DNA from: Armatimonadota bacterium
GTDB taxonomy: Bacteria; Armatimonadota; Fimbriimonadia; Fimbriimonadales; Fimbriimonadaceae
Length of the DNA stretch: 64,000 nucleotides
Assembly: GCA_016223145.1 (NCBI GenBank)
Contig: JACRPN010000012.1
Span: forward strand, 1-64,000
Direction: 5' to 3'
The translations under genes were made by a program, and so were the position numbers. The number at the start of each line of letters is the position of its first letter. Position 1 is the stretch's first letter. Below the pieces are notes generated by a model, which made no database searches, was not told where the DNA came from, and saw nothing but the letters and a program-made list of their open reading frames with translations. Shown in pieces: positions 1 through 54,792 of this stretch.

Positions 1-618
1 GGTCATGCGTTTTCGGTAAGTTCCGCTGTTTATTCGGCTGACGGAAGGCGAATCCTGACTTCGGCCTGGGACCATACCGCCCGAGTCTGGGATGCCGGGA
101 CGGGCAGAGAGCTGATGAAGCTAGAGGGCCACTCCTGGGGCGTCCCTTCAGCTGTCTATTCGGCCGACGGAAGGCGAATCCTGACTTCGTCCTGGGACAA
201 GACCGCCCGAGTCTGGGATGCAGGAACGGGCAGAGAGCTGATGAAGCTAGAGGGCCACTCCGACGATGTCAATTCCGCTGTCTATTCGGCTGACGGAAGG
301 CGAATCCTAACTTCGTCCCGGGACAAGACCGCCCGAGTCTGGGATGCAGGAACGGGCAGAGAGCTGATGAAGCTAGAGGGCCACTCCGGGCGCGTCTTTT
401 CCGCTGTCTATTCGGCCGACGGAAGGCGAATCCTAACATCGTCCTGGGACCATACCGCCCGAGTCTGGGATGCAGGAACGGGCAGAGAGCTGATGATGCT
501 GGAGGGCCACTCCCACTTTGTCAGCTCCGCTGTCTATTCGGCCGACGGAAGGCGAATCCTGACTTCGTCCTGGGACCAGACCAGCCGCATTTGGGACTCA
601 GTTACGGGTAAGCAACTC
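1..618 (+). repeat. Tandem 126-bp WD40-coding repeats, near identical
   Basis: Units begin at 115, 241, 367 and 493, and a partial unit covers 1-114. Units 1-3 share their first 21 bases and last 36 bases exactly. Differences concentrate in codons 8, 9 and 11 (WG/P, DD/N, GR/F, HF/S) and codons 27 and 29 (W or R; K, H or Q). Unit 4 is more diverged at its 3' end. The array may continue upstream of the window. Repeat number is likely unstable through recombination. Confidence 0.9.
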
Positions 619-2439
619 TGTTCCCTAATCTCCTTCACCGACGGCACCTGGGCCGTCGTGGACCCCGATGGCCGCTACGACGCCAGCAACGGAGGCGACA
701 TTCAGGGCCTTCATTGGGTGTATTCCGACCCCAAGAACCACATCCTCGAACCCATCGAGCTCAGCCAGTTCAAAGACCTCTACTACGATCCCGGTCTTCT
801 GGCAAAGAAGCTAGGCTTCAGCCCAGAGAAGCCCCGGCAGGTGCCGGACATCAAGTCCGTTAAGCTCTTCCCAACGGCGAAAGCCACACTCAGTTCAAAC
901 CACCAAAGCGCCCACGTGGAGATCGCCGAGCAAGCCGGCGGAGGGATCGGCGCATACAAGGTCTTCCTGAACGGATCGCAGATCTTTGAAGGCAAGGCGC
1001 CGCCGGGAGTCAAGAAGCACACCCTCGACCTCGATCTCAGGCCCTATTCCAAGCGCCTTATCCCGAAGGACGACCTCGCCAAAGGCCAAAGCAACAAACT
1101 GGAGGTCTTCGCCTATAACGGCGCCAACTCGCTCTCCAGTCGAGGGGTCGAGGTAGAGGTCCCAGCTCCCGCAACCAAAGGCGGTCCCCCCAAGCTCTTT
1201 ATCGTGGCTGCCGGGTGCTCGGACTATGAGGGTGAGGCCCTCGACCTCAAATACGCCGCCAAAGACGCCGTCGACTTCGCCAAAGCGCTCACGTTTGCCT
1301 CAACCAATCTTCTCGGCGCAGACCGCGTAGAGACCACGATCCTCGCCACCGGAAAGGCCGTCACCGGCTATGAGGAAGCCAGCAATGAGAACATTCGTTC
1401 ATTGCTCACTGCCCTGAAGTCGAAGGCAAGCGCCACGGACACGGTCGTGCTCTACCTTTCGGGCCATGGCGTTGCCCGAGCCGGCGAGGACTCGGACTAC
1501 TACTATCTGACCAAGGAATCGGGTCTTGCCAACCTCGACCGACCTGAAACCCGGTCCCAGCTTGCCATCTCGGGCAAGGAGCTCGCCGATTTGCTGGCTG
1601 CTATCCCCGCCAACAAGAAGGTCCTGATCCTGGACACCTGCGCGTCGGGCGCGGCCGCTCCCGACTTGACCAAAGGGCAGGATGTGGGATCGGACATCAA
1701 GCGCGCGTGGGAGCGGCTCAAGGACCATGCGGGCGTCTATGTCCTGGCGGGATGCGCTGCAAGCTCGGTCAGCTATGAGGCGACCAACGTGCGTCAAGGA
1801 CTACTCACGTATAGCCTCCTGGAGCCTTTGAACAAAGTGGATCCCCAGGTGCTGAAACTCACGCCGGAGGGAAGCTACCAGCTCGAGGTTTTGCCATGGC
1901 TCAGCTACAGCGAGCAGCGCGTGGGAGAACTGATCCAACAGCTTCAGCTCAGCGGCAGCCAGAAACCGGAGCTCAAGCCGGCGGCGAGAGCCCAGTCGTT
2001 TCCGGTTGGGCAACTCTCAAAGTCGGACGCGGGGAAGATCACCTTGGAACAGCCCAAAAAGGTGGTCCTGATGCGGGACTTTGAGAATGCGGAACGCGAG
2101 GACCCCCTGAGGCTTTCTTTTGCCATGGATGAGGCCCTAACCAAAGCCAGCGCCGAAGGGGCCTACGGCATGATCTACTGGCCCACGGTCCGCGACCACC
2201 CGACCGCCCACGTCTTGCGAGGTGAGTATTTAGAAAAGGACGGGGTCGTCTCGCTCAAGGTGTTCGTGCAGGCCTATGTGACGGGTGCAGACGGCCAGAA
2301 GTCCCGCAAGACGGTGAAGGAGTTCAGCGTGGCCGGTTCAAAGGACAAGCTCGCCGAGCTATGCAAGACCGTACTTGCTCAGGCAGGAAAAGAGCTGTGG
2401 GCTCCGAATCCAACCGCATCCAAGGTGTCGCTTCGATGA
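1..2439 (+). CDS. WD40-repeat / caspase-like (C14) protease fusion, 5' truncated
   Basis: The reading frame is open from base 1, so the N-terminus lies outside the window; 812 codons are visible. Five 42-residue WD40 repeats (one partial) occupy about codons 1-206 and end in ARVWDAGTGREL-type strands. They are nearly identical in DNA, with changes clustered just after GHS and in the WDxT turn. A linker containing WAVVDPDGRYD and GLHWVY follows, then a caspase-like p20 fold (about 395-560) with the expected His in YLSGHG (codon 489) and Cys in LDTCASG (codon 547). The C-terminal 140 or so residues resemble a TolB-N/CsgG-like alpha-beta domain (inference). The stop overlaps the next start as ATGA, implying translational coupling. 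A protease role is inferred from the dyad; substrate and location are unknown. Confidence 0.85.
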   Translation, partial: GHAFSVSSAVYSADGRRILTSAWDHTARVWDAGTGRELMKLEGHSWGVPSAVYSADGRRILTSSWDKTARVWDAGTGRELMKLEGHSDDVNSAVYSADGRRILTSSRDKTARVWDAGTGRELMKLEGHSGRVFSAVYSADGRRILTSSWDHTARVWDAGTGRELMMLEGHSHFVSSAVYSADGRRILTSSWDQTSRIWDSVTGKQLCSLISFTDGTWAVVDPDGRYDASNGGDIQGLHWVYSDPKNHILEPIELSQFKDLYYDPGLLAKKLGFSPEKPRQVPDIKSVKLFPTAKATLSSNHQSAHVEIAEQAGGGIGAYKVFLNGSQIFEGKAPPGVKKHTLDLDLRPYSKRLIPKDDLAKGQSNKLEVFAYNGANSLSSRGVEVEVPAPATKGGPPKLFIVAAGCSDYEGEALDLKYAAKDAVDFAKALTFASTNLLGADRVETTILATGKAVTGYEEASNENIRSLLTALKSKASATDTVVLYLSGHGVARAGEDSDYYYLTKESGLANLDRPETRSQLAISGKELADLLAAIPANKKVLILDTCASGAAAPDLTKGQDVGSDIKRAWERLKDHAGVYVLAGCAASSVSYEATNVRQGLLTYSLLEPLNKVDPQVLKLTPEGSYQLEVLPWLSYSEQRVGELIQQLQLSGSQKPELKPAARAQSFPVGQLSKSDAGKITLEQPKKVVLMRDFENAEREDPLRLSFAMDEALTKASAEGAYGMIYWPTVRDHPTAHVLRGEYLEKDGVVSLKVFVQAYVTGADGQKSRKTVKEFSVAGSKDKLAELCKTVLAQAGKELWAPNPTASKVSLR

Positions 2440-4577
2440 CGAAAACCTGCCTCTTGGCGGTTGCTGCCGCGATCACGGCCGGAGTGAGCCTGTTTGGCGG
2501 CTCCGCCGAAAATGCGCCCGTCGCAAACCGCTACGCGCTCCTCGTCGGGATCAGCGACTATTCCAAGGGCACGAACCCAAAGGACGGTTGGAGGAGCCTC
2601 AACACGGGTCCCGATCTGGTCCACCTAAGGCGCGTTCTGGAGGAGAGCTATGGGTTTCAAAACCTCCTGGTCCTCGAGAATTCGCAGGCGACTCAGGAGG
2701 AAATCAAGAAAGCGTTCCGGTCCCAACTGATCGAGAACGCGAAGAAGGCGGCTCCAGGCTCATCTTTTGTGTTCTATTACACCGGCCACGGGCACCAGGT
2801 CTGGAACCAGAAAGATGGAGAGCCGGGCCGTGACGCGGAGCCCGACGACAAGGATGAGTGCTTGGTGACCTGGGTGTCCGCTGCAGGTCAGAGCAAACCC
2901 GATGCCGAGCGCCTGAACGAGATGTACCTTCGCGACGACGATCTGAACGCGCTGCTTCGCGAACTCTCCGCCGCCACCGGTGGCAAAAGCAGCATCACTG
3001 TAATTCTGGACAGCTGTCATTCGGGCACGGGTGCCAAGGGATTCGCCGAGCAGAAGGGCAGAGCGTGGAGCGACGCATTCGATCCCCCAAGGCCACCGGA
3101 ACTCGGTGCCGATCCTTCGGCCCACGGTCCCTTGGCCACGCCTCAAGGGTCGCAAGACGGCGAACAAAGCGGATGGAGCACGGAAGAGGGCCTCCCGAAA
3201 GGAGTCGTGTTCGTTTCCGGCTGTGAGAGCGGCCAGTTCTCCTACATGATGGACGACAAGGCTGAAGGCAGCGTCATGACCTACTTCCTCTGCCAAGCCC
3301 TTACGGAAGCGGCGATTCCGACTGCCGCAGCGTCAAATGCCCCGGCCTTGGACGAGGTGACTTACCGTTCGATCCACGAGTGGGTTCAGCCGAGGGTCAC
3401 GGGCAAAATGCCTGCGCAATGGCCCCAGGTTGAGGGCCCGATCGACACGCCGATCTTCGGCGACGGGAAGCCCATCGCCTCCCGGCCCTATCTTTTGGCC
3501 ACTAAGGCCACCGGGACCAACCCGATCACGCTGACGTTCGCATCGGGGAAGCTGCGAGGAGTGACCGAAGGTTCGACCTACACGCTTTTCAAGCCCGGCT
3601 CCAACGTTGATGCCCCTGCAAACCGCATCGCTGAAGTAAAGATCATCCCCGGGAGCGTAGGGATGTTCGAGTCCCAGGCTACGGTGGTCCGTTTCACTGG
3701 CCCACCACTGGAGGCGGCAAAGATGGTCAGCGCCAGGGCCATGCCCAAAGAAATTGCTCTGCCGTTGCGGCCCCTTGCCGTTTCGCTTGCCAAAAGCGAC
3801 CCGAGGTTTGAGGCGATTGCCAACCTGCCTTTCGTTCGGGCAGAGACCACGGAAGGCAAAGGCGACGTCGCCTTGGCTTCCGTGGGCGGCAAAAAGGTCT
3901 GGCAGCGCTCGACTGGCATGACGCTGCTCGAGGATTCAGCAGATTTGGAAGCCATCACGGCTCGGCTGCTTGCCGAGTGGCGCTGGCAGGAGTTGACCCG
4001 GCTCGCATCTGGCCCCAATGCCCCAAGGGTCAAGGTACGGCTGGTGCGGGTGAAGCCGGGAATGCCCAGAGTCGAGACGGGTGAGGTCGTCGGCCCGGAT
4101 CTCATTCTCCCAAGCAGTGCAGAGCCTGGGGGCGTCGAGACGCTCTTGGAGGGCGATGAAGCCTACGTGGTTTGCGAAAACCGCTCCTTCAAACCCCTTC
4201 ATGTGGCGTTACTTTACTTGCTCGTCGATGGGAGCATTAGGGTGTATCCGGACCCTGCGCGCGGCGTGTTCGATATCCAGATCGAGGGCGATGGGAAGCC
4301 GCGCAGAATCGCATTCCTGCGTAACGCGGGGCACTACTTGACTCCAAACAAGGTGGACCGAGAGGTTTTCAAACTGATCGCGAGTGAGAAGTACATAGAC
4401 CTCACTGGCGTTGCTTACGAAGCAAGCGAGCGCCCGAACACGAAGGGTGACAAGCACGGACTGCAGGACCTGCTTCTTGGCATCCGTGATGGCCGGTCGA
4501 AAGGTCCCGATGTGGAGTTCGATGCGGGAGCAAGCTTTGCCGTCTCGGATTTGACTCTGGTGACGAGGAGAAAATAG
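2436..4577 (+). CDS. Secreted caspase-like (metacaspase-type, C14) protease
   Basis: 713 aa. The start at 2436 overlaps the previous stop as ATGA and gives a clean signal peptide (MTKTCLLAVAAAITAGVSLF). An upstream in-frame start exists but would place 25 extra residues before the signal. The caspase domain spans about residues 33-310: YALLVGISDYSKG strand, catalytic His118 in YYTGHGHQ, catalytic Cys194 in LDSCHSG. Acidic residues around GRDAEPDDKDE match the metacaspase-type calcium or basic-P1 loop. The C-terminal half includes a stretch with LLYLLVDGSIRVYPDP, resembling a DUF4384-type domain (tentative). The signal peptide predicts activity outside the cytoplasm. It sits between two WD40-caspase genes, so it may be activated by or act with them; that is inference. 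Confidence 0.85.
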   Translation: MTKTCLLAVAAAITAGVSLFGGSAENAPVANRYALLVGISDYSKGTNPKDGWRSLNTGPDLVHLRRVLEESYGFQNLLVLENSQATQEEIKKAFRSQLIENAKKAAPGSSFVFYYTGHGHQVWNQKDGEPGRDAEPDDKDECLVTWVSAAGQSKPDAERLNEMYLRDDDLNALLRELSAATGGKSSITVILDSCHSGTGAKGFAEQKGRAWSDAFDPPRPPELGADPSAHGPLATPQGSQDGEQSGWSTEEGLPKGVVFVSGCESGQFSYMMDDKAEGSVMTYFLCQALTEAAIPTAAASNAPALDEVTYRSIHEWVQPRVTGKMPAQWPQVEGPIDTPIFGDGKPIASRPYLLATKATGTNPITLTFASGKLRGVTEGSTYTLFKPGSNVDAPANRIAEVKIIPGSVGMFESQATVVRFTGPPLEAAKMVSARAMPKEIALPLRPLAVSLAKSDPRFEAIANLPFVRAETTEGKGDVALASVGGKKVWQRSTGMTLLEDSADLEAITARLLAEWRWQELTRLASGPNAPRVKVRLVRVKPGMPRVETGEVVGPDLILPSSAEPGGVETLLEGDEAYVVCENRSFKPLHVALLYLLVDGSIRVYPDPARGVFDIQIEGDGKPRRIAFLRNAGHYLTPNKVDREVFKLIASEKYIDLTGVAYEASERPNTKGDKHGLQDLLLGIRDGRSKGPDVEFDAGASFAVSDLTLVTRRK

Positions 4578-4581
4578 GGAC

Positions 4582-7500
4582 TTGATACGAAGACATGTTC
4601 TGAAGATTGGTCTGGCCATTGCCGCGCTGTCGCCGCTCGGTGGCTCGCCGACAGCGGCGAAACAGACTGCACATCCCAAGCCAGAACAGGAACTGCGTCT
4701 CCTCGTTTCCGATATGCAGATTGTAATAGCCCTAGACGTGTCCCGGGACGGCAAGCGGGTGTTAACCGGGAGCACAGATTCTATCGTCAGGCTCTGGGAC
4801 CTTGAATCCGAGAGCGAAGTGCTGAAGCTCGTTGGGCACACAGGCCAGGTGTGGTCGGTTGCCTTCGCATCGAATAAGACAATCGCCGTCACAGCGTGTG
4901 ATGACGGGACCATCCGCAGATGGAGCTTAAAAACAGGCAAGGAGATCAGTAGGATCACGCTCAAGGGAGGCGCCGGCAAAGTCATCTCAGTGTCGCCGGA
5001 TGGCAAGCGCTGCTTGGCAAATGGACTTCGCGGGACAGCCATTCTATGGGATCTTGAAACGGCCAAGGAACTAATGGTGCTTGATGTCCCCAATGATGCA
5101 GTGCACTCGGTCGCGCTCTCCCTGGATGGCACGAAGGCACTAACAGGCAGCGTTAGCGGTCCAGCCCACTTTTGGGACTTGAAGACTGGAGAGGAGCTCT
5201 TCAAACTCGATGGGCACAGGGGCCTATCCACGGTCGTCGCGTTCTCCCCGAACGGAAAACTGGCCCTAACCGGCAATTGGGACAAGACCGCATTGCTATG
5301 GGATCTGGTCGCGAAGAAGATCGTCTGGAGGCTCGCAGCACACACTCAGATGGTTACTTCGGTGTCCTTTTCCGATGACGGAACGAAGGTGCTGACAGGT
5401 TGTGCGGATGGAACTGCAAGAGTGTGGTCGGTCGCAACGGGCAAGGAGATCACCAGGTTTTCAACCAACAACAGGGGCGTTACCTGCGGGATGTTTTTGC
5501 CCGGCGGAACACAAGCTGCTACGGGCGGTTATGACAAGACAGTCCGAATCTGGTCGACCCAGACCGGAGCAGAGGTAAAGGCCTTGAGAGGCTACTGCGA
5601 GGGCGTGAGTTCCGTTGCCGTGGCAGATGGCGGCAAGCAAGTCGTAACGGGAGGCACCGAGGGCTACTTCCATCTTTGGGACTTCGGAGCCGGAATGGAA
5701 CTGCCCAGACGCGGTTTGCGGGGTGAGGCAATCCCATCCATTGCCATTCTTCCCCAGGCCAGGCAAGTTCTTGCCGGCTATGCACGAGGTCCATCCAAGG
5801 TCTGGAACATAGACACTGGAGAGGTGATTCGAGAGCTGGCAGTCGGCGATCGCGGTGTCGTCAAGGTTGCTGTGTCACCGGACGGAACCAAGGCACTTAC
5901 GGGTTATTGGGAAAAGTCCGTGGGCCTATGGGACCTCGCCTCAGGCAAGGAGTTGCTGAAGATCGACGGGCTCAAGTCGTGGGCCAGTGCAGTTGCGTTC
6001 TCTCCAGATGGAACGAAGGCCATTGTTGGGAGCCTCACGTCCGCTTACTTGATCGATCTTACGAATGGCGCCAAGGTTCAGACCCTAGATCAAGGCAGAA
6101 ACCTTGTGCTCTCCTGCGTGTTCTTCCCCGATGGGAAGCGTGTCCTCATTAGTGGAAGCAGGGGAAGCTCTGTGATATGGGACCTCTCGACGGGAGCGAC
6201 GAGCCATACCTTAAGCGCAAATCCTGACATCGTATTCTCCTCTGCAATCTCTCCCGATGGCGCCTTGGCATTAACAGGTGGACTGGATGGCGTCTTGCGT
6301 CTCTGGGATCTGGAGTCGGGGGGGCTGCGGCACCAGTTTCTTGGGCATACAGGACGCATCGATGCAGTTGCTTTCTCTAACGGGAGTAACTTCGCGGTCA
6401 CCGTCAGTTCCGACAACTCCGCCCGACTCTGGGATCTCAGCACTGGCAAGCAGATCTGTGCTCTGTATTCCTTCGACGATGGCAATTGGGCGGTAATCGA
6501 CCCTGAGGGCAGATTCGATTGCTCGGACGTTCAAAGCACAAAGGGCCTGCATTGGGTTTATGAAGACCAAGCGAAAGGGGTTCTGGAACCCATAGACTTA
6601 GCCCAGTTCGCGCCTTACTATCAAGAGCCCGGCCTGCTTCGGAAGATCTGGAAGGGCGAAAAGCTCGGACCAGTGCCGAAGATCGAGGACGTGTTGCTCT
6701 ATCCCAAGGTCGAACAACTGAAAGTGGACAAGGGGATCGTGTCCTTCAGCCTAAAGGACCAGGGCGGCGGGATTGGGAAGAGCAGGGTTCTCGTCGATGG
6801 AATGGAGGTCAAGGAGTTTGGTCCGGGAGCAAAGCACACGTTCGACCTCTCCAAAGTGCTAGAGGGGAGGAAGGATGCCCGTGTCTCGGTCGTCACCTAC
6901 GACGCAAAGAATTTCCTAGCCAGCCGTTCGGTCGAGGTGGAGTCCACAGTTCCAAAGGAGTCGGCACTTTCAAAGCCAGCAAAGATCGTCGCCGTGGTCG
7001 GAGGAATTGAGACCTATAGCTCGGAGAGACTCAAGCTCAACTACGCCGAGGACGACGCGATCGCCGTTGCGCAAACCCTCATAGCGCTTGCAGAAGGCCT
7101 GAAGGCGCCAATTAAGATCTCGCTGTTGTGCTCTGACCCTGCCGCCAAAGGTCTGCCAAAAGACAAAGTCACCGTCCTGGCCCCAAGCAAGGCGAACTTT
7201 GAGAAGGCGTTCTTGGATGCCGCAGCTGCGGCATCCGATCCCCTGGACCTGTACCTCGTATACCTTTCGGGCCATGCAACGGCTCTTGGCACCCCAGCGA
7301 AGTACTTGTATCTCACCCAGGAGGCACGAGGCGGGACGCCGGAGTATTTCTCCCAAAACTCCATCCAGAAGCAGCAGGCCATCTCAAGCGATGAACTGGT
7401 TTCTTGGATGGGGTCACGCAACCTCAGGGCTAAGAAGAGGGTGATCGTTCTGGACACTTGCGCCGCCGCCGCGGCAGAAGGCGTCGTCGTGGCCATGCGA

Positions 7501-8220
7501 AACGACGATCCCAGTCAAGCGCGAGCGATCAGCGCCTTTCAAAGCCGTACTGGAATGCACGCGATTCTCGGGTGTCCATCGGACCTTTTTAGCTATGAAG
7601 CGCCTGCCTATCGCCACGGGCTCCTGACCGCAAGCCTCCTCAAGGCAATTAAGAGCCAACCATTGGGCAACGACGCTTCGCCCGACGCCGTGCTCGTGGA
7701 CCGTCTCTTTCAGTTTGCGCGGGATGAGACCCCAAGAATGGCTGCTCGGCTTGGCTCACGTCAATCGCCCTCCGTGATCGGCGGCGACAGCTTTCCGATC
7801 GGGTTCTTGAATGACGAACTGCGAAAACAGATTCCGGCAACCGACCCTTCGCCTGTGTTCGTTAGGCCGACACTCTTCAACCCGGACGAGGGCGGCGACA
7901 CGATGAAGCTCTCGGATGCCCTTTCAGAAGCGCTGAACGAGATGGCCCTGGCCACGCGTGGACCAGGCAACGTAGCCCCGTTTGCAGTCTTCAGCGACCG
8001 ATCCCAATTGCCCGATGCCTACAAGATCCAGGGCTCGTACACCGTTTCTGGAGACAGCGTTACCCTCAGGATTTCCCTGTGGCAAAACGACAAGAGGCTG
8101 GAACCCGTGCTGACCGAAATCAAGTCCATCAAGTCCGAGGCAGTTCGGGATGTGTTAAGCGCAGTGAAGGCCTGGATGGACCACCGTCGCGCTCCGGTGC
8201 TGAGCGCCGCGAAGCGCTGA
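4582..8220 (+). CDS. Exported double WD40 propeller / caspase-like protease
   Basis: 1212 aa from a TTG start four bases after the preceding stop. No ATG gives a better N-terminus, and the TTG yields MIRRHVLKIGLAIAALSPLG, a signal peptide with twin arginines (possible Tat). About 14 WD40 repeats (residues 40-645) would make two seven-bladed propellers; they are diverged, unlike those of the first gene. A conserved linker (WAVIDPEGRFD, GLHWVY) precedes the caspase domain, with His898 in YLSGHA and Cys960 in LDTCAAA. The C-terminal tail from about 1095 resembles that of the gene at 1-2439. It is likely co-transcribed with the two upstream caspases. The partner or ligand of the propellers is unknown. 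Confidence 0.85.
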   Translation: MIRRHVLKIGLAIAALSPLGGSPTAAKQTAHPKPEQELRLLVSDMQIVIALDVSRDGKRVLTGSTDSIVRLWDLESESEVLKLVGHTGQVWSVAFASNKTIAVTACDDGTIRRWSLKTGKEISRITLKGGAGKVISVSPDGKRCLANGLRGTAILWDLETAKELMVLDVPNDAVHSVALSLDGTKALTGSVSGPAHFWDLKTGEELFKLDGHRGLSTVVAFSPNGKLALTGNWDKTALLWDLVAKKIVWRLAAHTQMVTSVSFSDDGTKVLTGCADGTARVWSVATGKEITRFSTNNRGVTCGMFLPGGTQAATGGYDKTVRIWSTQTGAEVKALRGYCEGVSSVAVADGGKQVVTGGTEGYFHLWDFGAGMELPRRGLRGEAIPSIAILPQARQVLAGYARGPSKVWNIDTGEVIRELAVGDRGVVKVAVSPDGTKALTGYWEKSVGLWDLASGKELLKIDGLKSWASAVAFSPDGTKAIVGSLTSAYLIDLTNGAKVQTLDQGRNLVLSCVFFPDGKRVLISGSRGSSVIWDLSTGATSHTLSANPDIVFSSAISPDGALALTGGLDGVLRLWDLESGGLRHQFLGHTGRIDAVAFSNGSNFAVTVSSDNSARLWDLSTGKQICALYSFDDGNWAVIDPEGRFDCSDVQSTKGLHWVYEDQAKGVLEPIDLAQFAPYYQEPGLLRKIWKGEKLGPVPKIEDVLLYPKVEQLKVDKGIVSFSLKDQGGGIGKSRVLVDGMEVKEFGPGAKHTFDLSKVLEGRKDARVSVVTYDAKNFLASRSVEVESTVPKESALSKPAKIVAVVGGIETYSSERLKLNYAEDDAIAVAQTLIALAEGLKAPIKISLLCSDPAAKGLPKDKVTVLAPSKANFEKAFLDAAAAASDPLDLYLVYLSGHATALGTPAKYLYLTQEARGGTPEYFSQNSIQKQQAISSDELVSWMGSRNLRAKKRVIVLDTCAAAAAEGVVVAMRNDDPSQARAISAFQSRTGMHAILGCPSDLFSYEAPAYRHGLLTASLLKAIKSQPLGNDASPDAVLVDRLFQFARDETPRMAARLGSRQSPSVIGGDSFPIGFLNDELRKQIPATDPSPVFVRPTLFNPDEGGDTMKLSDALSEALNEMALATRGPGNVAPFAVFSDRSQLPDAYKIQGSYTVSGDSVTLRISLWQNDKRLEPVLTEIKSIKSEAVRDVLSAVKAWMDHRRAPVLSAAKR

Positions 8221-8456: not shown

Positions 8457-8836
8457 CATTGCGCTTGCGACGAGAGATTGTGCATAGCAGAGCCTCACCG
8501 ATTCCCGCAATGGGATGCGCAGTGTTGGAAACAGCCCCGCACGAAGCTCTGGAGGACGACTCCAGCACTGGGCAGAGCGACGGATGAAACGGACTACGAT
8601 TCGCACCTGGCTCTGACCTGCGGAAGGAGACGCCGTGTCCCGTCGACCAACATCCACACTCTTCACTAAGTGAAAACACTGAGTTGTTCCGGGGGGTAAC
8701 TCGCGCGAATGAGGTCTTATACTCGGTGAAGGCGAGCCGGACGCTTGCGATCCTAACGATCGTCACAAGTGAACAAGGCTATCAGCTGATTGATTCTGCT
8801 GGTTGCTTGTGGTCAAACGACCCCGGCGTCGAAGCT

Positions 8837-9484
8837 ATGGCAATTGTTGAGGCGACGAAGCTGCCGCAGGCAGACGTGACCCGCGTGCATCGCATGGCAC
8901 GCGGGGACGAGGAAGCGACGCGGGAGGTGATGGATGCGCACCTCGACCCGCTGTTCTGCTTCGTCCGGCGTCGAATCGGGGGCTCGGTCGAGGACGCGGA
9001 AGAGATCGCCCAGGACACGCTGCTGACCGCCTGCGAGATCGGACTCACCTACGACGGCTCGTGCTCGGTGACGACCTGGCTCTGCTCGCTCGCGAGGCTT
9101 CGCATCAGCGACTTCCTTTCGCGAGAGGGCCGCCAGAAGCGCATCCCCAAGGAGATGCTTGTGAGGATTGACGACGATTCGAGAAACGCTTTGCGCTTGG
9201 CTCAGGACCCGGACGCGAACCTGGAGCAAATCGTAGACCAGATGGACCGCGTCAAGATGGTCCAAGCGCTGCTCGACACGCTGACCCCCGAACAGCGCGA
9301 GGCGATGACTATGCGCTACGTGGAGGAGTTCTCCGTCGCCGAGATCGCGCGTATCATGGGCCGCTCGGAAAAGGCTGTCGAGCGCCTTCTCGAGCGCGCC
9401 AAGGAGAAACCCCGCAAAGAGATGCTGCGGTGGCTCGGCGAGGCTGAGTTCCGAGTGTTGTGCCTGAGTTTGTTGGCGATATGA
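8837..9484 (+). CDS. ECF-type RNA polymerase sigma factor
   Basis: 215 aa. Region 2 is seen around FVRRRIGGSVEDAEEIAQDT and VTTWLCSLARLRISDFL, and region 4 around LTPEQREAMTMRYVEEFS with the helix-turn-helix VAEIARIMGRSEKAVERLL. I chose ATG 8837 because conserved sigma sequence starts soon after it; the open frame extends to 8684 without recognisable content. The stop overlaps the start of the FecR-PDZ-TPR gene as ATGA (9481-9484), so the two are coupled. That membrane protein is the obvious candidate for controlling it. The regulon is unknown, but the secreted proteins downstream are natural first targets. Confidence 0.88.
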   Translation: MAIVEATKLPQADVTRVHRMARGDEEATREVMDAHLDPLFCFVRRRIGGSVEDAEEIAQDTLLTACEIGLTYDGSCSVTTWLCSLARLRISDFLSREGRQKRIPKEMLVRIDDDSRNALRLAQDPDANLEQIVDQMDRVKMVQALLDTLTPEQREAMTMRYVEEFSVAEIARIMGRSEKAVERLLERAKEKPRKEMLRWLGEAEFRVLCLSLLAI

Positions 9485-12400
9485 ACGTTCAAGACCTGAG
9501 ACGCGCGTTTCTGGACCTGCTGGCCGACCTGCGGTCGGCGGGCAGGGGCGCGTCTCAGGGGGCGATCGGGGAGCTGTTCGACAAGAGACTGCCGGCCATG
9601 TTGTCGGCATTCGACGGGCACGGCGGGGAAACGGTCGCTCAGACGTCTCGCGACCGCATATTGATGACGGTGGTATCGACGACCAGGGCGCGCATCGAGC
9701 TTCACGGAGAGCCTTCCGCGTCGATGAACGGCCATGCCCACGGCATCCTCTGGCCTTGGCAGCCAGCGACACAGCCGCGTCCGGCAGCCCGACGATGGTC
9801 CTGGGGGCTGGGACTTGCCGGCGCGGCGGCGCTCCTGATGGTGGGCTGGATGTTGTACACGGCCCTCAACAAACCGGTGATCGTCAAGCAGGATGAGAAG
9901 TCCGGCACATCCGTTCCCATCCCCAAGGCACCCGAGAAACGCCCGGATGGCCCCATGGTCAAGGGCGGCACGCCTCCCGAGAAGAAGCTGGTGCCGAAGC
10001 CGGGTCCCAGGAAGCAAGATCAGCGGGTCGCCGTCACACAGCCGGAAGTCGGCAAGCTGGACTCGGTGATGGGCGAGCCTCTAGTCTACGCCCCCGGCAG
10101 CAAGAAGGGAATCACAGCCAGGCCCGGGATGAAGGTGGCGATGGGCTCGACCATCGAGACCGGGGACGCGGACAAGCTGGAACTGAAGTTCACGGACGGC
10201 ACGGTGCTGCGGCTCGACTTCAACACCAAGATCGAGATTCCGAGGGCAGGAGGCGCCAAGGTCACTTCATCGCTTGTCAGACCGGACAGCATCACGCTTG
10301 CCGAAGGCCGCCTCTACGCCATGGTCACCCACCACGAGGACGGGGCGCACTTCAAGGTGGAGACTCCTGCCGCCACTGCCGAAGTGCTGGGCACGGAGTT
10401 CGGGCTGACGGTGGAAAGGCTAGCGAAGAAACAGGACGGCCCCGACTACAAGACCACCTTACAGGTCAAGCAGGGCAAAGTCAGATTCTTCAATGATCTC
10501 GGCGAGAGGACCGCGACCGACCTCACGGAGATTTGGGCCACTGAAGACTCCATGCCGACCGCGCCAAAACGAGTTTCCAGCGTTGGCACGATCAGGCTGT
10601 CGGGATCTCATGTCATTAGGGTAATGACCTCGCGCATGACCTATGGGGAGTCGTTCGAGTCGATGGCTGGATCGATTGGCACCGTTGGGTGGCAGATTTA
10701 TGCCCTGGCCAACAGCAAGGTGGGTATTTCCAAGCGTGAACCAAAGGGCCCAGTTGGCAGCGTCGGACTACGCCCCACCGATCAGGTTTTCAGCGTAAAC
10801 GGCCTGCCTGTAAGGGGCGACCTTGCCACCTGGCTCACCGTTGCCGAAAGAGCCGGAGGCACAGTGACTTTGGGTGTCCTGCGCGAGAATCGGGTCTTGG
10901 TACGTACGGTCCAGGTTCGCGCTGGGCACCCTGACGCCGATTCGAATGCGCGCGGCTACTCTACGGCGCTTAGGGCGGCCACGTTGCGGGCGCTCAAGGA
11001 TAGAAACGAAGCGGGAAGGCAGGGGCTGGGCCTACTTGTAGACGAGTTCGCATCCGCTGCCGCAGCGAACAACCTCGGAGTGTCCCATGAGAGCTCGGAC
11101 GATATGGCGCGGGCAATCCGCTATTATCGACTGGCGATTGATCGTAACCCGGCTTCTCCCCTCTTCCATGCGAACTTGGGTCGTGCGCTCTATAAGATTG
11201 GCAACCTCAGGCGAGCAACTGAGGAATTCGGGGAGGCTTCTGCCCTTGCCCCAGCCTGGCTCGAAGCGAAGAAGCAGTGGATCAAATGCCTCTACCTCAC
11301 GAACCGAGCCTCGGAAGCGCTCGATGAGGTCCAGAAGCTACTTGATGCTTCCCCAAACTCCGCCGAGTTGCTCGCACTGAAGGGAGAGGTGCTCACAGTC
11401 TTGGGTGATCCCCAGCAGGGGATCGATGTGCTCACTCGGTCCGTTTCGATTGACCCATTTGATGCCCACGCATGGTTTGAGCTGGGTGAAGCCCACCACG
11501 ACTTGAAGAACCTCGCAGAAGCCGAGACCGCTTTCAGAAGAGCAACCGAGATCGATCCGGCCGATGCGGGGCCCGAAAACAACTTGGGTGTCGTACTCAT
11601 GCAGGCTGGAAAGCTCAAGGAGGCCGAAGCTCACCTTCGGAGAGCCGTCGCGATCTATCCCCGTTGGACCGTTGCGGTCAACAGTCTAGGAAGTCTGCTG
11701 TTTGATCTCCAGCGTTACCGAGAGGCGGAGGAGTGCTTCCGAACGGCTCTGGAGATTGAGCCTTCCAACATGCTAGTTCTCGGCAACCTTGGCAACGTGC
11801 TACGGCAGACAGGTCAGGTAAAGGAGGCGGAGAAGCTGCTGCGAGGAGCTATCGAGCGAAGCCCTGGCCACCCGGCCCCGTACGACATGCTCGGCCTACT
11901 TCTTTGGCAGACCGGGAGGCCGGCAGAAGCCGAAAGGTACGCGAGGGAAGCCTGTCGATTGGACTCCGGCAACGCGCTCGTCCACGTCCGGCTGGGCGTC
12001 ATTCTTGGCGCGTTGGGCAAGGTTCAGGAACAAGAGCAAGCCCTCCAAGCCGCCGTTGCCGCCGAGCCTAACAACTTCTACGCGCATGACAACCTGGGAG
12101 CGCTTTTCTCGGGCATGGGACGCTGGGCCGAAGCAGAGAAGCACAGTCGAAAAGCAATCGAGCTGAACCCCAGGTTCCCTGGGGCATACAACAACTTGGC
12201 TTGGTCGCTTTGGATGCTGGGCCGATCCGAGGAAGCGATGGAGGCCTTTCGCAAGGCGATCGCGCACCCTCGCAGGGAAGCGCTCGCTTTCGTAGGCTTT
12301 GGAGACATCCTGCTTCGGTCAGGACATGGCGCCGAGTCGGTAGAAGTCCTTCGAAAGGGCACTCGGGCCTTCCCCAAGGACGCCCTGGTTCACGCGATTC

Positions 12401-12744
12401 TGGCGCTGACCATTGCTCTGACGTCCGGAGACCTCGATGAGGCGCTTCGGCTTGCGCAGGCGGCGACGGAGCTCGATCCGCTCCTGATGGAAGCACGGGC
12501 TATCCTCGGGACCGTCCACCTCCATCGCAATGAAGTGGCGAAGGCCGAGGAGCATCTGTCCGCTGCGCTTCGGGGAACGGCCTTCGGCAGGTCGGGGTTC
12601 TCTGCGATACGGTGGGCGGACCTCGGGCTCGTCTACGAGCGCGGCGGCAGAAATGATCTTGCGAAGGGAGCTTACGGGGAAGCTCTCCGACTCGATCGCA
12701 ACGAGCAAAGAGCCGTAGAGGGCCTCAAGCGCCTCGGCGGATAG
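9481..12744 (+). CDS. Membrane FecR / PDZ-like / TPR protein, putative sigma regulator
   Basis: 1087 aa from the ATGA overlap with the sigma factor; an earlier in-frame start at 9460 would overlap more and is unlikely. About 105 cytoplasmic residues precede one transmembrane helix (about 107-128, LGLAGAAALLMVGWMLYTAL). A Pro/Lys-rich stretch leads to a FecR domain (about 190-345), a PDZ-like segment (about 393-480, with GLRPTDQVFSVNGLPV) and roughly fifteen TPR repeats filling 533-1087. FecR proteins relay outside signals to ECF sigma factors or act as anti-sigma factors. The N-terminal segment lacks the zinc-binding anti-sigma motif, so how it would bind sigma is unclear. The fusion of FecR with PDZ and so many TPRs is unusual. 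Confidence 0.8.
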   Translation: MNVQDLRRAFLDLLADLRSAGRGASQGAIGELFDKRLPAMLSAFDGHGGETVAQTSRDRILMTVVSTTRARIELHGEPSASMNGHAHGILWPWQPATQPRPAARRWSWGLGLAGAAALLMVGWMLYTALNKPVIVKQDEKSGTSVPIPKAPEKRPDGPMVKGGTPPEKKLVPKPGPRKQDQRVAVTQPEVGKLDSVMGEPLVYAPGSKKGITARPGMKVAMGSTIETGDADKLELKFTDGTVLRLDFNTKIEIPRAGGAKVTSSLVRPDSITLAEGRLYAMVTHHEDGAHFKVETPAATAEVLGTEFGLTVERLAKKQDGPDYKTTLQVKQGKVRFFNDLGERTATDLTEIWATEDSMPTAPKRVSSVGTIRLSGSHVIRVMTSRMTYGESFESMAGSIGTVGWQIYALANSKVGISKREPKGPVGSVGLRPTDQVFSVNGLPVRGDLATWLTVAERAGGTVTLGVLRENRVLVRTVQVRAGHPDADSNARGYSTALRAATLRALKDRNEAGRQGLGLLVDEFASAAAANNLGVSHESSDDMARAIRYYRLAIDRNPASPLFHANLGRALYKIGNLRRATEEFGEASALAPAWLEAKKQWIKCLYLTNRASEALDEVQKLLDASPNSAELLALKGEVLTVLGDPQQGIDVLTRSVSIDPFDAHAWFELGEAHHDLKNLAEAETAFRRATEIDPADAGPENNLGVVLMQAGKLKEAEAHLRRAVAIYPRWTVAVNSLGSLLFDLQRYREAEECFRTALEIEPSNMLVLGNLGNVLRQTGQVKEAEKLLRGAIERSPGHPAPYDMLGLLLWQTGRPAEAERYAREACRLDSGNALVHVRLGVILGALGKVQEQEQALQAAVAAEPNNFYAHDNLGALFSGMGRWAEAEKHSRKAIELNPRFPGAYNNLAWSLWMLGRSEEAMEAFRKAIAHPRREALAFVGFGDILLRSGHGAESVEVLRKGTRAFPKDALVHAILALTIALTSGDLDEALRLAQAATELDPLLMEARAILGTVHLHRNEVAKAEEHLSAALRGTAFGRSGFSAIRWADLGLVYERGGRNDLAKGAYGEALRLDRNEQRAVEGLKRLGG

Positions 12745-16766: not shown

Positions 16767-16852
16767 TGGCGGAGAGAGAGGGATTCGAACCCCCGGGACT
16801 TGCGCCCAACGGTTTTCAAGACCGCCGCAATCGACCACTCTGCCATCTCTCC
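16767..16852 (-). tRNA. tRNA-Ser (UGA anticodon)
   Basis: On the minus strand the gene runs from GGAGAGATGGCAGAG to an encoded CCA end. The acceptor stem GGAGAGA pairs with TCTCTCC. The anticodon stem GCGGT/ACCGT carries loop CTTGAAA, so the anticodon is TGA (plus bases 16816-16818). The long variable region and GTTCGAATC T loop are typical of serine tRNAs. Its last 23 bases are duplicated at 8309-8331. Confidence 0.95.
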
Positions 16853-16875: not shown

Positions 16876-16960
16876 GTTCGGGGGACGGGAGACTGGGAGA
16901 AGATGGGATGAGTCGGTGAGTAGGTGAAAGGGTGAGTGGGTTAAAAGGGGAGGGGAACCG
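16876..16960. repeat. Purine-rich low-complexity intergenic repeat
   Basis: A stretch of imperfect GGGAGA / GGTGAGT / GGTGAAAG units with few pyrimidines between the tRNA and the GH95 gene. It has no hairpin or coding character. It may be a remnant of an intergenic repeat family. Confidence 0.5.
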
Positions 16961-17015
16961 GTTAACCGCCACCCGGCCAGAAGGGCAGGCCGCTCCTCGC
17001 CCCGAATCTCAGACC

Positions 17016-19427
17016 ATGCACTTCTTGGCAGCCGCAATGCTCGTCTCAAATGGGATGGCCACACCAGTCGATCACCAGATCCAGAGCAGTGCGCTCACCC
17101 TCTGGTACCGCCAGCCCGCCAGGAACTGGAACGAGGCGCTTCCCATCGGGAACGGCCGAATTGGAGCGATGGTGTTCGGCGGCGCCGAAGAGGATCGACT
17201 CCAACTCAACGACGACACGATCTGGGAAGGCGCTCCGAGCGACCGCGTGAACCCCAAGGCCAGGGCCGCGCTCGACGAAGTCCGCCGCCTGATCTTTGCC
17301 GGCAAGAACGAAGAAGCCGCGAAGCTTGCGGGATCAGACATGATGGGCGTGCCCCCCACCATCGAGTCCTACCAGACCTTGGGCGACCTCAAGATTCGTA
17401 TACCGGAAGCTTCATCATCGCCGACCTATGAGCGCTCCCTGGACCTCGATTCTGCCCTTGCCACGTCGACGTGCTCCTATCGTCAGGGTCTCCTGACGCG
17501 GACAGCCTTTGCGTCAGCAGCTGACGATGTGATCGTCGTGCAGCTTCGCTCGGTCGCCGCCGGACCCTTGAACCTTGAGGTCTTGCTGGAGCGCTCTGCC
17601 AATGCGAAGACCACGGCGCACGGCTCCGATGGCCTTCACCTCTCAGGGCGCGCAGGAGATCGCGGCGTGAGGTTTGATGCCTTGCTCAGGGCAACGGTCG
17701 AAGGCGGCGCGGTTCAAGTGGATGGAAGCCGGCTGCTCGTGCAGGGGGCTCAGGCGGCCACGCTCTATCTGACCTCCGAGAGTGACTACAACCTCAAAAA
17801 CCCCGCAAAACCGCTCACCCGAGATCGGCTCGAAGCTTGCCAGAGTGCTTTGGATGCGGCGATGAAGAAGCCGTACAGGAAGCTCCTTTCCGACCACGTC
17901 ATCGAGCACCAGCGGCTCTTCCGCCGGGTCCGGCTGGACCTTGGCGCCCACCAAGAGGACCGGATTCCGACTGACGTTCGGCTTGCCGAGGTTCAAAAAG
18001 GCCGAGACGATCCCGCGCTGGCGGCGCTCTATTTTCAGTACGGGCGCTACCTGATGATGTGCTCGTCCAGGCCGGGCGATATGCCCGCGAACCTCCAGGG
18101 GCTCTGGTGCCAAGACATGAAGGCGCCTTGGAACGCGGACTACCACACCAACATCAATCTTCAGATGAACTACTGGCCCGCCGAAGTCGCGAATCTCTCG
18201 GAGTGCCACACCCCCCTCTTCGACCTGATGAACGAGATCGCCAAACCTGGAGCCGACGTCGCTAAGCGCATGTATGGCGCGAGGGGTTGGGTGGTCCACC
18301 ACCTGACGGATGTGTGGGGCTTCGCGACGCCCGCCGACGGGGTCTGGGGTGTGTGGCCGGTGGGTGCGGCCTGGCTCGCGCAGCACCCTTGGGAGCACTT
18401 TCAGTTCACACGGGACCGCAAGTTCCTGAAGGACCAGGGCTATCCGCTTATGCGAGGCGCGGCGCTCTTCTTGCTCGACTTCCTGGTTCCTGCGCCCGCT
18501 GACAGCCCGGTTGCGGGCAAGCTGGTGACCAATCCGTCCCATTCGCCAGAGAACGGGTTCCGGAAGCCCGATGGGACGACCTCGATGTTCACCTACGCCG
18601 CGACCATGGACCTTGAGATCGCCCACGACCTTTTCACAAACTGCATTAAAGCGATCGACGAGCTCGCCAAGAACCGTGCTGGGTTCGACAAAGACCTCCG
18701 AAAGGAACTTTTGTCGGCGCTGCGGCAGCTTGCCCCACTGCAGATCAGTCCCAAGACTGGAAGGCTCCAGGAATGGGTCGAAGACTATGATGAGCCGGAG
18801 CCGGGGCACAGGCACATGTCCCACCTCTTTGGGCTCCATCCGGGCCGCCAGATCTCCCTGAAGGGAACCCCTGAATTGGCCGCCGCCGTCCGCAAGTCCC
18901 TGGAATATCGGCTCTCGCACGGGGGAGGCCACACCGGTTGGAGCCGTGCCTGGATCGTCAACTTTTGGGCGCGTTTGAGAGATGCTGAGAAGGCCCACGA
19001 AAACCTCACCGCGCTCTTTGCGCATTCCACCTTGCCCAACCTCTTCGACAACCATCCGCCGTTCCAGATCGACGGAAACTTTGGGGGATGCGCGGGGATC
19101 GCCGAGATGCTGCTGCAAAGCCACGAGGGCGGGCTCGCCCTGCTGCCGGCTCTGCCAAACGCCTGGCCCGAAGGCGCGGTCGAGGGATTGAGGGCAAGGG
19201 GCGGCTTTGAGGTCTCGATGGTGTGGTCCGGGGGCGTTCTGAGCCAAGTGGGCATCAAGTCTCTGGCTGAGACGCCCGTCTGCAGGCTGCAGGTCCCGAC
19301 AAATGTCGCGGTTGCATCCGCATCGGTCGATGGCAAGGAGATCACGGTGCGAGAAACCGGCGGGTGGATGAACCTGACGATCCGCAAGGGAAAGTCGGCA
19401 ATCCTCAAGATCAAGCCTCGAACCTAA
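17016..19427 (+). CDS. GH95 family alpha-L-fucosidase
   Basis: 803 aa. It opens [20 protein letters not shown] and [10 protein letters not shown], the signature N-terminal sandwich of GH95 inverting 1,2-alpha-L-fucosidases (some members act on L-galactosides). The (alpha/alpha)6 catalytic part shows [19 protein letters not shown], where the two catalytic Asn lie, [20 protein letters not shown] with the acid Glu region, and FQIDGNFGG with the conserved Asp. The start is uncertain: ATG 17016 or 17040 would both give a short hydrophobic leader, so export is likely. Fucose isomerase at 35357-37162 provides the next metabolic step. It converges with the GH20 gene, eight bases apart. Confidence 0.9.
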
Positions 19428-19434
19428 GGGGCCG

Positions 19435-21369
19435 CTACCAGTTGCCCACGCGCCGGACCCGGATGTCGCCGTAGGAGTCGGTGCCGCCGTCTGTGCGGGC
19501 CGTAATGCGGAGAGAAACGTGGGCTATGGGCGGGAGCTTGGCCACCTTCAGCCTGTAGCGATTGCCCTTGTTGACACTGCCTGTAGACCCATCGTGAACG
19601 TCTTCAGCAACGACGCGGCCATTCACGACCAGTTGCACCGACTGGATGTCCAGCCGGCAATCGCCATAGGCGTATTCGAGCAGAACCTCGTAGATTCCAG
19701 GCACACGATCGAAGGACTTAGCGGGCCAATCGACCGTTCTGCAGGACTCCCCAAAGGTCTCGGGCGACCAGCTTCCCAGTTTGGGCGGAGCTGGAGGGTC
19801 TATGGGATGGTGGCGTACCCCCATGGCGTCCAGCCGTGCGACGTGGGCTTTGAGCCTTGGCAGGAACTTAGCATAGGTGGGTCGCTCCATTTCGGACCAA
19901 ACCACTTCGCTGAACACGCTGAGCCTCGGGAAGAGCTGATACTCGGCGATGTCCCAGGTTGGGATCGCCTCGGTCCATAGGGCGCTCTGAGCTCCCAAGA
20001 CATGATGCTTCAAGTCAGGCTCAAGCTGATTCGGGACCGGCTCATAGGACCAAAGCCGCTCGAGGCCGAGCTTGCCCCAGGGGCGCTTGAGCTCCAGTTT
20101 CGGGTCACTGGTCTGGGCTTGGTCGAAGTAGCAGAAGGCTGCGGGAGACATGATCACGTCGTGGCCCTGGCGAGCCGCTTCGATCCCCCCGGCCTCGCCA
20201 CGCCAGCTCATTACCGTGGCTCCCTGCGCGAGAAAGCCCTCCAGAATCTCGTCCCAGCCGATGAGCTTTCGCCCCTTAGAGGCCAGATAGCGGTCCATCT
20301 GCGAGATGAACCACGCCTGAAGCTCTTCTTCGTTTTTGAGGCCAAGGCTCATCATCTTGGCTTGCGCCCGCTCGCTGGCCTTCCATTGGCCCTTGGGCGC
20401 CTCGTCTCCGCCGATGTGAATGTAGCGGGAAGGGAAGATCGCCAGGACTTCGTCTAGGACGTTCTGCATGAAGCGGACCGTCGAGTCTTCCACGTTCAGG
20501 ACGTCGACGTGCGTGCCCCAACCCGTGGCCACTTCGAGTGGGATGCCGGTATTCCCCAGTTCCGGATAGGCCGCGATGGCGGCCTGGGAGTGGCCGGGCA
20601 TTTCAATCTCGGGGAGCACCGTCACGTGCCTTTGGGCGGCGTACTTGACGATTTCACGAAGGTCGCTCTGTGTATAGAAGCCAGAATGCGGCTTCCCTGA
20701 GAACTCGTCGGGCGCATCGTTGACTTGGGTGTCCCTGCGCTTGCTTCCGATCTCGGTGAGCTTTGGATAGCGCTTAATCTCGAGCCGCCAGCCCTGATCG
20801 TCGGTCAGGTGCAGGTGAAGCACGTTCATCTTGTGCATCGCGAGAAGGTCGATGAACCTGAGAATCTTGGGTTTTGGGAAAAAGTGCCGGGCGACGTCGA
20901 GGTGGGCGCCGCGCCAGGCGAATCGGGGCCTGTCTTCGAGCGTCAGGCAGGGGAGTTTCCACTGGCGGCCCCTTGGTTTGGCCGAGCCAAAGGAGGAATG
21001 CGGGAGCATCTGCCGCAGAGTCTGAACTCCGCAATGGACCCCCGCAGGTGTCGAGGACTCAATTCGGATCCCACTTGGATCAACGTGCAGCCGATAGCCC
21101 TCGGAGCCGAGCGTCGAAAGCCGCTTGTCGAGAATCAGACGAATGCTGCGAGAGCCTTTGGCCCGCTTGCCGGGCAAGGGCAGTTTGGCGGGCTTGCCGA
21201 TCCAATGCCTAAGCAGCGAAGCCTCGTTCGCCAGGCCAGGGTCTGCGACGAGGCTCGTTCGGCGGTCGAGGATGAAGGCACCTGGCAGCGGGCGCGCCGT
21301 TGCCGGCCTCGGCAGAAAGCAGGACCCTTGCCCGGTGAAGAGAATGGAAAGCGCCGCAAGCACAACCAT
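19435..21369 (-). CDS. GH20 beta-N-acetylhexosaminidase, secreted
   Basis: 644 aa from ATG 21369, which directly starts the hydrophobic leader MVVLAALSILFTGQG; an upstream start at 21393 adds eight residues. An N-terminal alpha-beta domain precedes the barrel beginning RFAWRGAHLDVARHF. LHLHLTDDQGWRLEIKRYP and GGDEAPKGQW, the Asp-Glu pair of substrate-assisted catalysis, are both present, as is the Trp-rich substrate pocket (WRGEAGG). The last 130 or so residues after the barrel look like a carbohydrate-binding beta domain. It is transcribed divergently from the GntR-type regulator, with a palindromic candidate operator between them. Confidence 0.92.
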   Translation of the reverse strand: MVVLAALSILFTGQGSCFLPRPATARPLPGAFILDRRTSLVADPGLANEASLLRHWIGKPAKLPLPGKRAKGSRSIRLILDKRLSTLGSEGYRLHVDPSGIRIESSTPAGVHCGVQTLRQMLPHSSFGSAKPRGRQWKLPCLTLEDRPRFAWRGAHLDVARHFFPKPKILRFIDLLAMHKMNVLHLHLTDDQGWRLEIKRYPKLTEIGSKRRDTQVNDAPDEFSGKPHSGFYTQSDLREIVKYAAQRHVTVLPEIEMPGHSQAAIAAYPELGNTGIPLEVATGWGTHVDVLNVEDSTVRFMQNVLDEVLAIFPSRYIHIGGDEAPKGQWKASERAQAKMMSLGLKNEEELQAWFISQMDRYLASKGRKLIGWDEILEGFLAQGATVMSWRGEAGGIEAARQGHDVIMSPAAFCYFDQAQTSDPKLELKRPWGKLGLERLWSYEPVPNQLEPDLKHHVLGAQSALWTEAIPTWDIAEYQLFPRLSVFSEVVWSEMERPTYAKFLPRLKAHVARLDAMGVRHHPIDPPAPPKLGSWSPETFGESCRTVDWPAKSFDRVPGIYEVLLEYAYGDCRLDIQSVQLVVNGRVVAEDVHDGSTGSVNKGNRYRLKVAKLPPIAHVSLRITARTDGGTDSYGDIRVRRVGNW

Positions 21370-21393
21370 GGTTTCGCTACTAGAGTGACACAA

Positions 21394-54780: not shown

Positions 54781-54792
54781 TACCGGCCATTG

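What the first reader, a model, noticed from the sequence alone, without database searches (positions are those of the whole stretch)
1..618. Internally conserved WD40 repeats with hypervariable codons fused to a caspase
The 42-residue repeats of the first protease are nearly identical at the DNA level, but codons 8, 9 and 11 after GHS and codons 27 and 29 in the turn differ in almost every unit. High internal identity plus change at a few surface positions is the pattern known from fungal NLR WD40 sensors (HET-D/E/R), where repeats are reshuffled and diversified for ligand recognition. Here it is joined to a caspase-type protease, with two further caspase genes in the same operon. This suggests a self-diversifying recognition protease.
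Basis: partly seen in the sequence, partly recalled or inferred. Interest (0 to 1): 0.85.

Follow-up and report, generated by a model that had tools for sequence, protein, structure and literature searches.

The report
Exported caspase with hypervariable WD40 array
A bacterial caspase-type protease, probably exported from the cell, carries a chain of near-identical WD40 repeats that differ mainly at the few positions expected to touch a binding partner, so it looks like a diversifying recognition protein, although what it recognises is unknown.

Summary
Window 1-630 encodes five 42-residue WD40 units. The window begins at a contig start inside the array: the gene's N-terminus and two further full units plus a partial one lie on another contig of the same genome (at least seven full units, total unresolved). 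Seventy-six percent of amino-acid variation sits in five codons, all among the seven known hypervariable positions of fungal HET-D/E; in the model they lie in the top-face loops. Core codons are under purifying selection (pN/pS 0.07-0.09); at the five codons pN is about 2.5 times core pS. The genome has no reverse transcriptase hit, so a DGR is unlikely.

The protein belongs to a widespread family: signal-peptide-like N-terminus, usually 14 WD40 blades, linker, caspase, often in tandem with other caspase genes. Most members, including the closest relative found, have ordinary diverged repeats; near-identity is episodic. In one Nitrospirota pair, DNA identity falls from about 0.9 to 0.6-0.7 exactly over the array and recovers in the caspase half; a Bacteroidota pair shows no drop.

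Highly repetitive WD40s with variable hotspots, and WD40-caspases, are already published. New here: an apparently exported, NTPase-free caspase with array-limited turnover. The ligand, and same-species strain variation, remain untested.

The parts
1..630 (+). WD40 array: five 126-nt units (GHAFSVSS, GHSWGVPS, GHSDDVNS, GHSGRVFS, GHSHFVSS); the 5' part of the array is missing at the contig start
   Evidence: remainder of array and gene start on contig C20:1-~400 minus strand
10..21 (+). Hypervariable codons 4, 5 (10-15) and 7 (19-21) of the first unit (repeat every 126 nt); d-a loop and start of strand a
   Evidence: variation; secondary structure; Wu 2012 R1-2 and R1 hotspots
67..75 (+). Hypervariable codons 23 (67-69) and 25 (73-75) of the first unit (repeat every 126 nt); b-c loop, flanking the Asp
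   Evidence: Wu 2012 D-1 hotspot
631..1212 (+). Conserved linker between propeller and caspase (SFTDGTWAVVDPDGRYDAS..., then a mainly beta region), shared by the family
1213..1860 (+). Caspase (Peptidase_C14) domain of gene 1; catalytic His in YLSGHG (codon 1465-1467), Cys in LILDTCASG (codon 1639-1641)
   Evidence: both columns invariant in 15 aligned members
1861..2439 (+). C-terminal region of gene 1, conserved in the family
2436..4577 (+). Gene 2: caspase without WD40 repeats; signal-peptide-like N-terminus; ATGA overlap with gene 1
4582..8220 (+). Gene 3: signal-peptide-like N-terminus, about 14 diverged WD40 repeats, caspase (6988-7659); a paralogue of gene 1 without the near-identical repeats
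8684..9484 (+). ECF-type sigma factor, downstream and on the same strand; whether it belongs to the unit is uncertain
9460..12744 (+). FecR-domain protein with TPR array following the sigma factor

Best explanation
Gene 1 encodes an exported sensor-protease. A cleavable N-terminal segment takes it to the periplasm or cell surface; two seven-bladed WD40 propellers (the family norm of 14 blades; the number here is unresolved) present a top face built from the variable codons; binding of a partner to that face controls the C-terminal caspase, which probably acts together with the caspase of gene 2. The blades are kept alike by recombination between repeats (concerted evolution), while selection keeps the five or so contact codons different, so new binding surfaces arise by reshuffling blades. 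The likely role is recognition of a partner that itself varies (phage, competitor or kin marker). Shown here: domain order, position of the variable codons, rate contrast, catalytic dyad, signal-peptide-like N-termini, tandem caspases, and array-limited turnover in one other pair of the family. Inferred: export itself, ligand binding, activation of the caspase, link to gene 2, and the role in conflict or recognition.
For: Hot codons are HET-E positions 11, 12, 14, 30, 32; the seven HET-E positions hold 84% of entropy, P = 5e-6 (positions from PMC12222747). In the AlphaFold model of the window protein (array pLDDT about 95) strands are 6-11, 17-22, 26-31, 37-42 of the unit, so codons 4, 5 lie in the d-a loop, 7 at the start of strand a, 23 and 25 in the b-c loop, the top face of Wu 2012. 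Core pN/pS 0.07-0.09; pN at hot codons 0.56-0.60 against core pS 0.21-0.24; neutral simulation at 1x, 1.5x and 2x the core rate gives P at or below 0.0005. The same positions dominate in 17 other similar-repeat arrays of various architectures. The family has the same plan across many phyla, with an N-terminal hydrophobic segment in 31 of 40 members. A 14-repeat member is modelled as two seven-bladed propellers, each within 0.7-1.0 A of designed WRAP propellers. Nitrospirota pair L181/L183: about 0.9 identity in leader and upstream gene, 0.61-0.76 over the array, 0.78-0.99 in the caspase half, repeats not collinear, hot residues 84% different against 9% in the caspase half. Tandem caspases in 32 of 76 loci, and one natural fusion of a gene-2-like caspase with a 14-WD40 caspase (L155). 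No reverse transcriptase hit and no second similar array in the genome.
Against: At the hot codons pS is also high (0.66-0.80), so pN/pS within them is about 0.7-0.9; five codons cannot separate diversifying selection from a locally raised rate, and the simulation no longer rejects neutrality at 3x (P = 0.13). No strain of this species is available. The closest relative found (L115, 50% in the best aligned segment of the caspase half) has ordinary diverged repeats, and its WD40 and caspase parts lie in two separate open frames. Bacteroidota pair L157/L165 shows no turnover at similar caspase divergence. No neighbour is a recognised defence gene; PADLOC gives only weak or generic hits. The gene-1 signal sequence lacks a charged n-region.
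Confidence: 0.55

Rival explanations
1. The array is simply a recently amplified WD40 propeller. Blades were copied from one blade, the core is held by folding constraints, and the five positions vary because they are the least constrained surface positions. There is no recognition of a varying partner; the propeller is a scaffold or substrate-docking platform.
For: New propellers are amplified from single blades in all lineages (PMC9218822). The same positions vary in arrays of every architecture examined. pN/pS within the hot codons is below 1. Most family members have diverged repeats.
Against: pN at the hot codons exceeds core pS by about 2.5-fold, and neutral simulation at up to twice the core rate does not reach it. 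The residues are large and chemically diverse (W, R, F, H, D, G). Array-limited turnover between two related genomes is hard to explain by relaxed constraint alone.
Confidence: 0.3
2. A diversity-generating retroelement or another targeted mutator writes the variable codons.
For: Variation is confined to a few codons, and synonymous change is also raised there. DGRs diversify sensors near caspase-type effectors in other bacteria (PMC10907252).
Against: No reverse transcriptase hit in the genome assembly (97% complete). Variable codons include TGG, GGG, CGG, AAG and TCG, not the A-to-N pattern expected at AAY codons (expectation from general knowledge). Changes are spread over repeated units rather than a single 3' variable region.
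Confidence: 0.03
3. The difference between the two GHAFSVSS first units, and part of the variation, reflects mixed strains or misassembly of the repeat array rather than one real array.
For: Both contigs end inside the array and share an exact 59-nt start of unit before forking. Similar arrays also lie at contig ends in G073, G069 and L135. Short-read assemblies are known to omit or create such repeats (PMC12222747).
Against: The variable codons are consistent on both contigs, and the pattern recurs in arrays on uninterrupted stretches of other genomes (L101, L104).
Confidence: 0.12

Closest known systems
Highly-Repetitive WD40 proteins of bacteria and fungi (Hu et al. 2017, PMC5587647)
   Same: Near-identical WD40 repeats, conserved except at the predicted interaction hotspots; about half of the 305 described are bacterial
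   Different: Described as sequence statistics. Here the array is in an apparently exported caspase family, and array-limited turnover between two genomes is shown for one pair.
HNWD genes het-d, het-e, het-r of Podospora anserina (PMC12222747, PMC4986451)
   Same: 42-residue WD40 units with high internal conservation, the same variable positions, array fused to an effector domain
   Different: HNWD proteins are intracellular NLRs with a NACHT domain and known allelic partners (HET-C). Here there is no NTPase, the effector is a caspase at the other end, and export is predicted.
WRAP propellers of cyanobacteria (Npun_R6612, PDB 2ymu; Dunin-Horkawicz et al. 2014 as cited in PMC9218822)
   Same: Highly symmetric WD40 arrays proposed to serve bacterial innate immunity; 2ymu is the best PDB match by sequence (E 4e-123), and a family member's double propeller aligns to it over 559 residues
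   Different: WRAP proteins are described with STAND ATPases and TIR or caspase domains; gene 1 has no ATPase.
WD40-containing prokaryotic metacaspases/orthocaspases (Asplund-Samuelsson et al. 2012, PMC3501461)
   Same: WD40 is the commonest partner domain of bacterial caspases (10.9%); extracellular location was already suggested for some
   Different: Near-identity of repeats and hypervariable positions are not treated in the passages read; the best-known WD40 architecture there has a NACHT between caspase and WD40.
DGR-diversified conflict systems of multicellular bacteria (PMC10907252; Kaur et al. 2020, PMC7159879)
   Same: Variable sensor coupled to protease effectors including caspases
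   Different: Diversity comes from reverse transcription into C-type lectin domains; none is found here.

Membership tests
Prokaryotic caspase homologue (Peptidase_C14) | C14 domain with His-Cys dyad | tested here: met
   Pfam PF00656 E 5e-14; YLSGHG and LDTC motifs present, both invariant among 15 members. Activity not tested.
Highly-Repetitive WD40 (Hu 2017) | At least six repeats within eight contiguous ones with all pairwise identities above a threshold | tested here: inconclusive
   Seven full units, protein identity 67-93%, but split over two contigs so contiguity is unproven, and the paper's threshold was not read
Highly-Repetitive WD40 (Hu 2017) | Variation concentrated at R1-2, R1 and D-1 hotspots | tested here: met
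   Three hotspot codons hold 50% of entropy, P = 3e-4
HNWD fungal NLR (het-d/e/r) | HIC WD40 repeats variable at positions 10, 11, 12, 14, 30, 32, 39 | tested here: met
   84% of entropy at these positions, P = 5e-6; six of the seven vary among the non-last units, position 39 does not
HNWD fungal NLR (het-d/e/r) | NACHT NTPase and HET effector domain | tested here: not met
   Pfam finds neither among the listed hits; frame is leader, WD40, linker, caspase
HNWD fungal NLR (het-d/e/r) | Allelic repeat-number polymorphism | not testable with these tools
   No second strain of the species in the collections used
Diversity-generating retroelement target | Reverse transcriptase in the genome | tested here: not met
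   No PF00078 match in G000; controls matched
EACC1-associated caspase system (NF047832, Kaur 2020 System 4) | Caspase above the NCBIfam cut-off | tested here: not met
   63.4 bits against cut-off 140
EACC1-associated caspase system (NF047832, Kaur 2020 System 4) | Upstream EACC1 gene | not tested
   No EACC1 model was searched; the upstream genes gave no NCBIfam hit naming it
Exported WD40-caspase family defined here | Signal-peptide-like N-terminus, WD40 array, linker, caspase half alignable over its length | tested here: met

The most novel reading that the evidence does not exclude
A family of caspases outside the cytoplasm, spread over many bacterial phyla, serves as self-renewing recognition receptors: blades are reshuffled within strains and the contact codons are under diversifying selection, giving bacteria an envelope-located counterpart of the fungal HET/NLR system that triggers a caspase cascade without any NTPase.
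Probability: 0.22. Interest if true: 0.85.

Novelty: new variant of a known kind. Interest (0 to 1): 0.52.

Why it matters
If right, it places a diversifying WD40 recognition surface, so far best understood in fungal incompatibility, on an exported bacterial caspase, and gives a concrete family in which to ask what bacterial caspases sense. The Nitrospirota pair shows that the array can turn over while the gene on both sides stays about 90% identical, which makes the question testable by resequencing.

Tried and rejected
Strain comparison within the species: not possible; the two same-genus genomes lack the gene, and the first scan of named genomes found no relative. DGR: no RT hit. A donor array elsewhere in the genome: only C12 and C20 match at DNA level. 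Defence-system libraries: only weak or generic hits. RNA element: only a tRNA at 16770-16852. Conservation of the upstream genes or of the sigma/FecR genes with the caspase: not found in the relatives fetched, apart from one weak sigma hit. Seven-blade periodicity in 14-repeat members: no clear peak at lag 7. The Foldseek search with the window model listed only propellers in its top rows, so it says nothing about the linker or caspase half. More close Nitrospirota relatives: only two of 14 family genomes carry the gene. A structure-pair count was called on a protein alignment by mistake and returned nothing.

Full report
What is there. The window is the start of contig C12 of a 3.87-Mb assembly in 23 contigs. 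Position 1 is not a gene start: the frame 1-2439 is open at the 5' side, and the missing part lies on contig C20, minus strand, positions 1 to about 400. There the gene begins with TTG, a short hydrophobic segment (MLAVALLVSFLGAPNPGHG...), then LHLVPQT and the repeats GHAFSVSS..SSDDKT, GHSHVVNS..SSYDKT and a cut third. C12 begins with the same 59 nt as the first C20 unit and then differs. So either two units of this type exist in one array, or strain variants were assembled apart. At least seven full units exist; the true number is unknown. Full-length relatives in which the repeats are well detected mostly have 14.

Variation. Over seven full units, DNA identity has median 84% and protein identity 86%. 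Codons 4, 5, 7, 23 and 25 carry 76% of the amino-acid entropy. The seven HET-E positions, taken from PMC12222747, carry 84%, P = 5e-6; the three hotspots of Wu 2012 carry 50%, P = 3e-4. Core codons show pN/pS 0.07-0.09. At the hot codons pN is 0.56-0.60 against core pS 0.21-0.24; neutral simulation at up to twice the core rate does not reach the observed value (P at or below 0.0005), at three times it does (P = 0.13). The pS at the hot codons is itself high, so selection and locally faster change are not fully separated; linked retention of older differences around selected codons is another possibility (inference).

Structure. The window protein is modelled with the array at pLDDT around 95. 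The variable codons sit in the d-a loop, the start of strand a and the b-c loop. By Wu 2012 these loops form the top face, where WD40 proteins bind partners. A 14-repeat relative, L176, is modelled as two seven-bladed propellers (residues 1-281 and 292-572) matching WRAP-T designs at 0.7-1.0 A and 2ymu over 559 residues. By sequence the array's best PDB match is 2ymu, and the caspase half matches metacaspases.

Family. The caspase half finds relatives at roughly 34-42% identity in 27 of 85 family genomes (some are weaker) and 76 named loci in Armatimonadota, Acidobacteriota, Bacteroidota, Planctomycetota, Nitrospirota, Proteobacteria and others. They share a hydrophobic N-terminus (31 of 40 members with a 12-residue mean hydropathy above 2.0), the WD40 array, a linker and a caspase with invariant His and Cys. 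Most arrays are diverged; higher internal identity recurs in L135 (Flavilitoribacter), L149 (Pyrinomonadaceae) and L176. The closest relative, L115 (50% in the best segment), has diverged repeats, so near-identity in gene 1 is recent or re-established.

Replicates. Seventeen other similar-repeat arrays, both in this family and in TIR, STAND-like or stand-alone exported proteins of Fimbriimonadaceae, have three to six of their seven most variable columns among the HET positions. Where core pS is below 0.35, pN at those positions exceeds it 1.5- to 2.8-fold.

Between genomes. L181 and L183 (Nitrospirota) are syntenic. Identity along the alignment is mostly 0.84-0.96 upstream and in the leader, 0.61-0.76 over the array, then 0.78-0.99 in the caspase half and 0.88-0.94 just downstream; other flanking genes are near 0.78. 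The repeats are not collinear: between-array identity (0.67) equals within-array identity (0.67-0.71). Aligned residues differ at 84% of hot positions, 35% of WD40 core and 9% of the caspase half. L157 and L165 (Bacteroidota), with the same caspase-half DNA identity (0.91), keep collinear repeats at 0.92-0.98 and nearly the same hot residues. Turnover is thus episodic. L059/L061 also show a faster array half (0.68 against 0.83).

Context. Gene 2 overlaps gene 1 by ATGA and gene 3 follows after 4 nt. Upstream on C20, same direction, are an overlapping 634-aa gene, a 280-aa gene and a CHASE2 protein. Two or more caspase genes occur in 32 of 76 loci, a lower bound because many stretches are short. 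L155 is a natural fusion of a gene-2-like caspase (whose catalytic Cys column reads Ser) with a 14-repeat WD40-caspase. These support joint action of the two caspases (inference).

Known or new. Hu 2017 reported hotspot diversity in highly repetitive WD40s of bacteria; Asplund-Samuelsson 2012 reported WD40 as the commonest partner of bacterial caspases and suggested extracellular roles; Pereira and Lupas described WRAP and repeated amplification. The present case is a new variant of that known kind. What is added is the combination of predicted export, NTPase-free caspase fusion, the rate contrast at positions known from elsewhere and array-limited turnover in one pair. Recognition of a ligand and activation of the protease are not shown.

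Noticed in passing
L181 (3178-6513) against L183 (6027-9317): Between two Nitrospirota genomes the WD40 array of this caspase family has turned over completely while leader and caspase half stay about 90% identical.
   Followed up: yes
L101:5473-6324 and 6526-7497 (minus), L109:4117-5094 (minus): One Fimbriimonadaceae genome (G017) has three stand-alone exported WD40 proteins of 6-7 similar blades with almost the same leader (MNKNKLITILLLACIAGAALA); the arrays differ at the same hot positions.
   Followed up: partly
L104:5374-8502 (minus): A non-caspase protein in G072 has nine WD40 units (median 85% identical) in which hot-codon types recur (EPVY, SLVV), suggesting block duplication of blades.
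   Followed up: partly
L155:3300-9710: Planctomycetales protein of 2136 aa fusing a gene-2-like caspase (catalytic Cys column reads Ser) to 14 WD40 repeats and a second caspase.
   Followed up: partly
L011:404-2308, 2339-3181, 3203-5242 (minus strand, contig C20): Genes upstream of gene 1: a 634-aa and a 280-aa protein without Pfam hits and a CHASE2 protein; no homologues of them were found beside the caspase in the relatives fetched.
   Followed up: partly
window 16932-21393 and 52750-63237: Several glycoside hydrolases (GH95, GH20, GH31, GH106) suggest a polysaccharide-degrading lifestyle.
   Followed up: no
window 8684-12744: ECF sigma factor overlapping a FecR-domain protein with a long TPR array, just downstream of the caspase genes.
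   Followed up: partly
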